Assembly (NCBI RefSeq): GCF_020535245.1
Contig: NZ_CP084910.1
Coordinates: 62,001 to 126,000 of the forward strand
Direction of reading: 5' to 3'
Source of the DNA: Asticcacaulis sp. AND118
GTDB taxonomy: Bacteria; Pseudomonadota; Alphaproteobacteria; Caulobacterales; Caulobacteraceae
Length of the DNA stretch: 64,000 nt
Below are positions 5,036 through 44,081 of the stretch, piece after piece. Position numbers and translations under genes: made by a program. The notes beneath the pieces are model-generated. The model saw nothing but the letters and a program-made list of their open reading frames with translations, did no database searches and had not been told where the DNA came from. How positions within the stretch are numbered: position 1 is the stretch's first letter; each line of letters starts with the position of its first letter.

Positions 5036-5680
5036 ATGACTTTCACACAACAAATCCGAGGTGTGCGGGGGATCCTGACCGTGCTGGGCCTGCTCCTGCT
5101 GGCGGCCTGCGACGCCGGACCGTCGGCTGTGCTGACAGACGGCAAGGGCCAGGCGCCCGCGGAACAGGTCGCGCCCCTTGAGGCCGCTCCCCAAACGCCC
5201 CAAACGTCGCAGACACCGCGCGCAACGCCGCCGCCCATCGAGGCCGAAATACCCGCGCCCCGCGTCGAAAACGACGCCATCCGTCTGACACCAGGTCCGA
5301 AGGCCGAGGTTACCCGCACGCGCTACGGCGACTGGCCGCTATGGTCGTCGAACCGCAAATATACGGCCTATGAAAATGCGACCTATCATTATGAAAAGCA
5401 CGGGGCGGAGATCGGCGCGCGCTCCTATGAAGAGTGGCTGGCCATGGTCCACGGTTTCATCCATACGCCGCCTGCCGGGGTTGAAACCTTGGCCCGCAAT
5501 AATGGCGACACCCTCTTCTACGACAAAAACCGCAATGTTTTCGCCGTGATGACGAAGAAGGGCGCGCCGCGCACCCTTTTCCGGCCCTATGAGGGTGCAG
5601 TCTACTGGCAGAAGCAAAAACAGATCGAGGCTGAACGGCGAACGATCACAAGAGACAATTTTGACCCTGGCGTCGATTAA
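5036..5680 (+). CDS. Lipoprotein with a C-terminal toxin-like (BECR-fold) nuclease-type domain
   Basis: 214 residues. The N-terminus has a hydrophobic stretch ending in a lipobox (LLAAC, Cys about 24), which predicts lipid anchoring outside the cytoplasm. Residues 25-95 are a Pro/Gln/Ala-rich linker. The C-terminal 115 residues (YHYEKHGAEIG, SYEEWLAMVHGF, NGDTLFYDKNRNVFAVMT, GAPRTLFRPYEGAVYW) match from memory the pattern of domains at the tips of polymorphic toxins, assigned to the barnase/EndoU/colicin D-E5/RelE group. That assignment and any nuclease activity are inference. No immunity gene is adjacent: coaBC is divergent and a GGDEF-EAL gene follows. Confidence 0.75.
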   Translation: MTFTQQIRGVRGILTVLGLLLLAACDAGPSAVLTDGKGQAPAEQVAPLEAAPQTPQTSQTPRATPPPIEAEIPAPRVENDAIRLTPGPKAEVTRTRYGDWPLWSSNRKYTAYENATYHYEKHGAEIGARSYEEWLAMVHGFIHTPPAGVETLARNNGDTLFYDKNRNVFAVMTKKGAPRTLFRPYEGAVYWQKQKQIEAERRTITRDNFDPGVD

Positions 5681-42904: not shown

Positions 42905-42965
42905 CTTGACGTAGGCAACAAAACTCTTTTGAGTTCAATTCAAAAATACACGCTAGGGTCTATTT

Positions 42966-43784
42966 TTGAATAAGCCTACATTTATTGCCTACATAGATGA
43001 AGCTGGTGACGAAGGTTTTGGCAAACTGAAAGCCCGCCCCGGCGCAAGCGGCCAATCTGCTTGGTTTCTTTTGGGCGCTTGCATCGTGCGCGCAGAAAAC
43101 GATCTGCTTTTACCCAAATGGCGGGATGAGATTTTGTCCAGCTTTCATGGGAGCAAGATGAGAGACCTTCACTTTAGAAATCTCAAACACGATCAAAAAG
43201 TTGTAGCATGTCAAATTTTATCGGGCAAAAAAATCGGTGTATGTGTTGTTGCATCAAATAAGATCACGATTGCAGAACATCAAAAAAGGGAAATTTTTAA
43301 AAAACCACAACATCTATATAATTATATGGTGAGATTTTTGTTAGAGCGCGTTACTAGCGCTTGTGCAGAAGCGGCCAAAAAATCGGGTTCTAATTCTTGT
43401 GCATTAAAAATTGTTTTTTCTCGAAGAGGCGGCACTAATTATCAAACAATGAAAGAATATCTTGCATTGATTAGAGATGGGAAGGAAAAAATATTCTCAA
43501 ATTATAAAATAGATTGGTCAGTTTTAGACATAGATTCTATTGAAGTTGAAAACCACTCCAAAAGAGCCGGCTTGCAAGTCGCAGACGTTATCACAAGTGC
43601 GATGTTCTGTGCGCTGGAGCCTAACGCTTATGGAAATTTTGAACCGAGATATGCTAATATCTTGCAAGGCAAGTACATCAAATCAAAAGGAAGATTGTTA
43701 AATTTCGGTGTAACCCTAATTCCACCATTAGGGAGAAACCCAATCTGCGATGAGCGTCGTAAGTTTTTACTTCAATTGAAATAG
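42966..43784 (+). CDS. DUF3800 protein (predicted RNase H-like fold)
   Basis: 272 residues, TTG start; the conserved first strand YIDEAGDEG is already at 9-17 and no ATG suits. The family signature is complete: Asp11 with the DEAGD loop, the basic middle with LHFRNLK near 68-74, and SKRAGLQVADVITSA at 198-212 with the second acidic residue Asp207. DUF3800 is thought to be an RNase H-like nuclease; its function is unknown and members cluster in mobile or defence islands. The gene is far richer in A and T (AAA, ATT and AAT codons) than its neighbours, indicating transfer. A structured RNA candidate starts 3 bases after the stop. Confidence 0.9.
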   Translation: MNKPTFIAYIDEAGDEGFGKLKARPGASGQSAWFLLGACIVRAENDLLLPKWRDEILSSFHGSKMRDLHFRNLKHDQKVVACQILSGKKIGVCVVASNKITIAEHQKREIFKKPQHLYNYMVRFLLERVTSACAEAAKKSGSNSCALKIVFSRRGGTNYQTMKEYLALIRDGKEKIFSNYKIDWSVLDIDSIEVENHSKRAGLQVADVITSAMFCALEPNAYGNFEPRYANILQGKYIKSKGRLLNFGVTLIPPLGRNPICDERRKFLLQLK

Positions 43785-43787
43785 GGT

Positions 43788-43872
43788 GGCGAGCCCCTGG
43801 CTCCTGATTCACATCGCAATGGATGCTGCCGCCATAAGGCAACTCGGAGTTTAAGTCCAGCGCTTGCTCGCC
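43788..43872 (-). ncRNA. Candidate structured RNA next to the DUF3800 gene (orientation uncertain)
   Basis: The 85 bases fold as a closed multibranch structure. The terminal helix pairs GGCGAGC (43788-43794) with GCTCGCC (43866-43872). Inside, CTGG (43797-43800) pairs with CCAG (43857-43860) and CTCC (43801-43804) with GGAG (43846-43849). Two hairpins sit in the junction: CATC/GATG (43812-43825) and TGCC/GGCA (43827-43841). The helices also hold for the opposite strand. A minus-strand promoter candidate (43880-43907) would start RNA at about 43873, exactly at the terminal helix. From memory, several structured motifs named DUF3800 have been catalogued beside DUF3800 genes; membership here is unproven. 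Confidence 0.55.
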
Positions 43873-43879
43873 GAGTCGT

Positions 43880-43907
43880 ATAATAGTGCTTCTCGCATAA
43901 TTTGCAA
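43880..43907 (-). promoter_or_regulatory. Minus-strand promoter candidate for the structured RNA
   Basis: Read on the minus strand, TTGCAA (43907-43902) and TATTAT (43885-43880) are 16 bases apart. Transcription would begin near 43873 and run toward the DUF3800 gene, through the folded element. The same bases contain TATAAT on the plus strand but no matching -35. Confidence 0.4.
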
Positions 43908-44081
43908 GAGTCAATCGAACAAAAAGGGAACGTTTTAACTCTTTTACGCGCGTGCAGATAAAAAAATCAAATTAGGTGCAGAAGAGACACTGATTCGATA
44001 TGTGGTTATGCAATCGACTTTTAACTAGCAGCTTCTCCGCGCAGTGATAATGTCTTGGAATACCCGCAAAAAGAGGCCCTG

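What the first reader, a model, noticed from the sequence alone, without database searches (positions are those of the whole stretch)
42966..43872. DUF3800 gene with an adjacent multibranch RNA element in an AT-rich island
Three bases after the DUF3800 stop, 85 bases fold into a three-way-junction shape: a 7-bp terminal helix, CTGG/CCAG and CTCC/GGAG helices on one contiguous 5' strand, and two internal hairpins. A TTGCAA-16-TATTAT promoter on the minus strand would start RNA exactly at the terminal helix. DUF3800 is a predicted RNase H-like protein of unknown role, and several structured RNA motifs near DUF3800 genes are, as far as I recall, already catalogued. An RNase H-like protein beside a compact RNA suggests a protein-RNA pair, perhaps defence or RNA-controlled. 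The island's low GC marks it as foreign.
Basis: partly seen in the sequence, partly recalled or inferred. Interest (0 to 1): 0.85.

Follow-up and report, generated by a model that had tools for sequence, protein, structure and literature searches.

The report
Nuclease gene paired with structured RNA
The RNA beside this gene is an already catalogued family (DUF3800-VII) found next to its RNase-H2-like partner gene in nearly every relative examined, but several phage-derived contigs carry the RNA without the gene, which hints that the pair is an RNA-restrained anti-phage nuclease and that some phages carry a decoy copy of the RNA.

Summary
Window 43783-43872 (minus strand) is Rfam RF02967, DUF3800-VII (56 bits, gathering score 36.2), tail-to-tail with a DUF3800 gene (42966-43784 +). 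The element itself is therefore a new member of a known but functionally unexplained kind.

New here: (1) of 96 loci found by protein alone, 89 carry the RNA at E<0.001, always on the opposite strand, 3' end to stop codon (median -1 nt). (2) The fold is proven by covariation (24 of 26 pairs with double changes). (3) A sigma70-type promoter sits at fixed distance before the RNA's 5' end across phyla. (4) The protein is confidently modelled as an RNase HII fold with invariant D11, E12, H69, E127 and D207. (5) RNA-first scans of viral contigs found six lineages with an intact RNA and no DUF3800 on the contig; three lie upstream of terminase genes. They fall in five places of the RNA tree and keep every highly conserved base. 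(6) In temperate-phage contigs the full pair lies beside the repressor or integrase.

Best reading (inferred, about 0.45): an RNA-inhibited nuclease, type-III-toxin-antitoxin-like in logic, used in phage defence, with phage decoy RNAs. No transcript, binding, toxicity or phage assay exists.

The parts
42966..43784 (+). DUF3800 gene (272 aa, TTG start); predicted RNase HII-fold nuclease, invariant D11 E12 H69 E127 D207
   Evidence: PF12686 E 4e-11; AF2 pLDDT 94.9; RNase HII Z 11.6; residues invariant 88/88
43783..43872 (-). DUF3800-VII RNA (RF02967), 5' end at 43872, 3' end at the DUF3800 stop codon
   Evidence: 56 bits against a gathering score of 36.2; covariation in homologues
43880..43907 (-). 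sigma70-type promoter of the RNA, TTGCAA-16-TATTAT
   Evidence: same placement relative to the RNA 5' end in 88 distinct homologous upstream regions
43917..43931 (-). GTTCN7GTTC box (alphaproteobacterial LexA-type consensus from general knowledge), function unproven
   Evidence: exact in window, L002 and L016, one mismatch in L013, L018, L092; 3 exact against 0.21 in shuffles
42907..44005 (.). approximate extent of the AT-rich insert between rplS and the GSDH gene
   Evidence: empty rplS-GSDH intervals in G006, G011, G019, G023; GC 0.407

Best explanation
A two-part module: an RNase HII-fold nuclease (DUF3800) and a ~90-nt structured RNA made from its own promoter on the opposite strand. The RNA binds the protein and keeps the nuclease from harming the cell; infection (or loss of the module) upsets the balance and frees it, giving abortive-infection or addiction behaviour. 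Some phages carry a solitary copy of the RNA that supplies extra inhibitor and so disarms the nuclease. Shown by computation: the family, the fold and its covariation, near-obligate tail-to-tail linkage, promoter placement, protein fold and invariant residues, repressor/integrase neighbourhood, solitary RNAs in viral contigs. Inferred: binding, inhibition, toxicity, triggering by phage, and the decoy role.
For: Linkage: of 96 loci found by protein sequence only, 89 have the RNA at E<0.001, all on the opposite strand, with median distance -1 nt from the stop codon; some of the other 7 show a diverged version by eye. Covariation: 513 double-change cells against 149 in shuffles; score 0.64 against at most 0.11 for slid controls. 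Protein: RNase HII fold, D11/E12/H69/E127/D207 invariant in 88 of 88, so no sign of a dead enzyme. Asymmetry: intact protein without a recognisable RNA is rare, while RNA with broken or missing protein recurs: frameshifted in plasmid L005, N-terminal 147 residues missing in L445, only a C-terminal remnant in genome locus L471. Solitary RNAs: six lineages in viral contigs (L136, L450, L451, L452, L453, L454 group) with zero PF12686 on the seven whole contigs searched; RF02967 at 54-68 bits in the four lineages rescanned; all 16 most conserved positions kept, 23-26 of 26 pairs formed, scattered over the RNA tree. Context: full pair next to CI-like repressor or integrase in temperate-phage contigs; solitary RNA upstream of terminase genes. 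Precedents: phage PhiTE pseudo-ToxI RNA disarms ToxIN (PMC3475682); solitary phage RNAs mimic CRISPR repeats (Racr, PMC10651486); DUF3800 proteins accompany Cas12a2 and type VI-F loci (PMC10910872, PMC12669027).
Against: No experiment. In Legionella a strain-specific DUF3800 gene scored as essential by transposon sequencing (PMC7811196), which fits an antidote protein better than a toxin; its subfamily and RNA partner are unknown to me. The arrangement (convergent, own promoter, one copy of RNA) is not that of type III toxin-antitoxin operons. Solitary RNAs could have a function unrelated to DUF3800, and the viral contigs are metagenomic fragments with unknown hosts. PADLOC (2023) has no model for this protein. 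The protein-first search was seeded on intact active-site peptides, so broken genes are under-counted there.
Confidence: 0.45

Rival explanations
1. Ribonucleoprotein enzyme: the RNA is a required cofactor or scaffold of the nuclease (not its inhibitor), still probably for defence; phage copies are competitors that hijack the protein.
For: Same linkage, covariation and phage-copy data; DUF3800 proteins accompany RNA-guided Cas systems (PMC10910872).
Against: The RNA has no variable guide-like segment: transcription is predicted to start at the first base of the terminal helix and a U-run or terminator often follows its end. It does not directly explain RNA kept beside broken proteins.
Confidence: 0.25
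2. RNA is the harmful or selfish part and DUF3800 the nuclease that destroys or processes it (protein as antidote).
For: Essentiality of a DUF3800 gene in a Legionella accessory region (PMC7811196); the protein looks like a ribonuclease.
Against: Intact RNA is tolerated where the protein is frameshifted or deleted (L005, L445, L471) and where it is absent.
Confidence: 0.1
3. Cis-acting antisense or terminator element that only regulates the DUF3800 mRNA.
For: Strict tail-to-tail placement at the stop codon.
Against: The full fold and conserved unpaired bases persist in contigs that lack the gene; a dedicated promoter drives it as a separate transcript.
Confidence: 0.08
4. The solitary phage RNAs have their own phage function (for example near packaging genes or in noncoding-RNA clusters) and the DUF3800 pair co-opted such an RNA.
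For: Three of six lineages lie upstream of terminase genes and several lie in long noncoding stretches with repeats or possible tRNA-like pieces.
Against: The other lineages lie elsewhere; solitary RNAs are polyphyletic and nested among linked ones, for example L452 at 82% to linked L444 and L450 at 81% to linked L019, which suggests capture from DUF3800 loci.
Confidence: 0.12

Closest known systems
DUF3800-VII RNA (Rfam RF02967)
   Same: Sequence, fold, neighbour gene; the window copy scores 20 bits over the gathering score.
   Different: Nothing in kind; the family had no assigned role in any source I could read.
Type III toxin-antitoxin systems (ToxIN, CptIN, TenpIN)
   Same: Proposed logic: a nuclease held by a structured noncoding RNA, carried on mobile elements; phages known to carry mimic RNAs against ToxIN (PMC3475682).
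   Different: Here one RNA copy, convergent to the gene, own promoter, multiloop fold, RNase HII-like protein; type III has tandem RNA repeats upstream of the toxin in one operon, with a terminator between (PMC5086642).
RNase HII / RNase H2
   Same: Overall fold (Z 11.6 over 175 residues to 1eke_B) and an Asp-Glu pair at the end of the first strand.
   Different: About 14% identity; the fourth strand bears Ser152, not Asp, and Glu127 on a helix is invariant instead; no evidence of RNA/DNA hybrid cleavage.
RNA anti-CRISPRs (Racr)
   Same: Solitary copies of a defence RNA encoded in viral genomes (PMC10651486).
   Different: No CRISPR repeat and no Cas protein involved.

Membership tests
Rfam RF02967 DUF3800-VII | Score above the curated gathering score over the whole model | tested here: met
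   56.0 against 36.2 bits, model positions 1-90
Rfam RF02967 DUF3800-VII | Beside a DUF3800 gene | tested here: met
   PF12686 at 42966-43784
Pfam PF12686 DUF3800 | Score above gathering score | tested here: met
   44.2 against 21 bits
RNase HII (enzyme family) | Same fold | tested here: met
   Z 11.6, rmsd 4.0, 175 aligned, well above unrelated rows
RNase HII (enzyme family) | Asp-Glu-Asp-Asp active site | tested here: inconclusive
   D11, E12, E127, D207 invariant; geometry in the model not measured; arrangement differs from DEDD
RNase HII (enzyme family) | Cleaves RNA of RNA/DNA hybrids | not testable with these tools
   needs an enzyme assay
Type III toxin-antitoxin | Tandem RNA repeats upstream of the toxin in one operon, terminator between | tested here: not met
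   one RNA copy, opposite strand, own promoter
Type III toxin-antitoxin | RNA neutralises a toxic nuclease by direct binding | not testable with these tools
   needs toxicity and binding assays
Type III toxin-antitoxin | Pseudoknotted antitoxin RNA | not tested
   only nested pairs were modelled

The most novel reading that the evidence does not exclude
DUF3800 with its RNA is a previously unrecognised class of RNA-inhibited nuclease used against phages (RNase HII fold, convergent single-copy RNA), and unrelated phages have repeatedly captured the RNA alone as a decoy.
Probability: 0.4. Interest if true: 0.85.

Novelty: new member of a known kind. Interest (0 to 1): 0.6.

Why it matters
DUF3800-associated RNAs have been catalogued as structured RNAs of unknown role. 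If the solitary phage copies are decoys, they give the first direct handle on what these RNAs do, link a widespread RNase H-like protein to phage defence, and add another example of phages using RNA mimicry. Each step can be tested with one gene and one RNA in a laboratory strain.

Tried and rejected
Thermodynamic folding as proof: neither strand folds convincingly better than shuffles, so it was replaced by covariation. Insertion by an element with terminal repeats: no convincing terminal repeats or target duplication around the insert. Other DUF3800 RNA families in loci without a clear hit: none in Rfam. Sequence relatives in the PDB: none convincing. tRNA genes beside the solitary RNAs: ARAGORN finds none at default settings and gives noise at relaxed settings, so 'tRNA-like' stays an impression. 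LexA control of the RNA: the box is enriched but limited to one alphaproteobacterial clade, so it is noted, not claimed. Blastn of solitary RNAs against named phages gave only the Rhizobium phage that carries the full pair as a convincing match; hosts of the solitary-RNA phages could not be named. Two weak hits (L361, L180) were dropped as probable chance.

Full report
What is there. The minus strand of 43783-43872 is a full-length match to Rfam RF02967, DUF3800-VII RNA. It abuts, and by two bases overlaps, the stop codon of a DUF3800 gene on the plus strand, 42966-43784. Both sit in an insert of about 1.1 kb (GC 0.41 against 0.62 for the window) between rplS and a glucose/sorbosone dehydrogenase gene. 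Four close relatives have only about 90 bases there. One other genome of the genus (G012, which corresponds to Asticcacaulis sp. YBE204, L009) carries a cassette with 87% protein identity in the same interval, but with an extra sequence between rplS and the cassette that G017 also has without the cassette. The window genome has one copy and 1 of 99 other sampled relatives has it, so it is accessory.

Is the RNA real? A covariance model was built from five sequences and extended. Loci were collected by protein alone: 80 from bacterial and archaeal genomes and 16 from viral contigs. At E<0.001 the RNA is present in 89 of these 96. It always lies on the strand opposite to the gene, with its 3' end at the stop codon (median -1, nearly all between -7 and +15). 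The hosts span Proteobacteria, Planctomycetota, Verrucomicrobiota, Nitrospirae and others. One locus, L048, has two cassettes in tandem. Across 90 distinct sequences 94.4% of pair cells are standard pairs and 24 of 26 pairs show changes on both sides; slid controls collapse. The alignment was fitted to the model's structure, which inflates pair counts somewhat, but the margin over slid and shuffled controls is large. Unpaired bases G10, G12, A76, G79 and C125 are nearly invariant.

Transcription. In 88 distinct upstream regions the composition shows a -35 TT and a TATAAT-like -10 at fixed distance from the first base of the terminal helix; U-runs or terminators often follow. The window's TTGCAA-16-TATTAT fits this register. 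The RNA is therefore most likely a separate small transcript of about 90 nt, without a variable guide segment.

Protein. AlphaFold2 gives a confident model (pLDDT 94.9). The best solved matches are RNase HII/H2 and HIII (Foldseek E 2e-4; Z 11.6). D11, E12, H69, E127 and D207 are invariant in 88 sequences. The D-E pair at the end of strand 1 is where RNase HII has its D-E (general knowledge); E127 and D207 lie on helices; the end of strand 4 has Ser152. This agrees with the published statement that DUF3800 is an RNase H fold with a catalytic rearrangement (PMC10910872). I did not measure the active-site geometry.

Solitary RNAs. Scanning viral contigs for the RNA rather than the protein (scored) gave a set of clear RNAs. 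Part have an intact DUF3800 tail-to-tail, one has a truncated gene (L445), and six lineages have none: L136, L450 (L291), L451 (L283), L452 (L446), L453 (L269) and the L454 group (L339, L340, L465, L375, L469, L466). Whole-contig searches of seven of these contigs (19 to 73 kb) found one RNA each and no PF12686. Rfam calls RF02967 in the four lineages rescanned with it (L450 and L453 were scored by R2 only). All nine aligned solitary RNAs keep the 16 most conserved positions and form 23 to 26 of 26 pairs; they branch in about five places among linked RNAs. That points to repeated gain of the RNA alone, or repeated loss of the gene, with selection on the RNA. The tree rests on about 90 columns and its deep branches should not be trusted; the nesting of L450 and L452 beside linked RNAs at 81-82% identity is the firm part. 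L451, L454 and L450 lie upstream of terminase genes. L452 sits among repeated noncoding units. In the L454 group L469 aligns to L454 essentially only over the RNA block. By contrast, full pairs in temperate-phage contigs and in Rhizobium phage RHph_TM3_3_3 follow a repressor or adjoin an integrase, a place where superinfection-exclusion genes are common (general knowledge).

Interpretation. A protein that rarely occurs without its RNA, an RNA that tolerates loss of the protein (L005, L445, L471), and phages that carry only the RNA together resemble the logic of a toxin with an RNA antitoxin and a phage mimic, as shown experimentally for ToxIN and phage PhiTE (PMC3475682). It is not a type III toxin-antitoxin by architecture (PMC5086642). 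The cofactor model is the strongest rival. The Legionella essentiality datum (PMC7811196) argues the other way and is unresolved.

Limits. Viral contigs are fragments without known hosts; the protein-first search favours intact active-site motifs; RNA-first patterns sample only some RNA subtypes, so frequencies are not prevalence estimates. RNA-first sampling of cellular genomes gave six genomes, five with a DUF3800 gene and one with a remnant. Nothing has been tested at the bench.

Noticed in passing
window 43917-43931: GTTCN7GTTC (LexA-type box of alphaproteobacteria) upstream of the RNA promoter, shared at the same position with several relatives, and near-matches over the -10 in Rhizobium-type phages; possible SOS control.
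   Followed up: partly
L454:4649-4717 and 5426-5496 (minus): Two Twister-sister ribozyme matches above gathering score in the same phage contig as a solitary RNA.
   Followed up: no
L452:10900-11630: Repeated noncoding units (CGCCTGACAAGAGCYAGACAAAGACGAGATAAGTCTGGCGAAGG) flank the solitary RNA; they may be a family of small RNAs.
   Followed up: no
L048:1500-6597: Two DUF3800-RNA cassettes in tandem beside a DpdF/PsyrT-like (RecQ-type) helicase gene.
   Followed up: partly
L471:600-1587: DUF3800 reduced to a C-terminal remnant of about 45 residues while the RNA is intact; the upstream reading frame looks like a nuclease-domain gene.
   Followed up: partly
L006: Cupriavidus plasmid copy lies next to imuA and the error-prone polymerase operon.
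   Followed up: no
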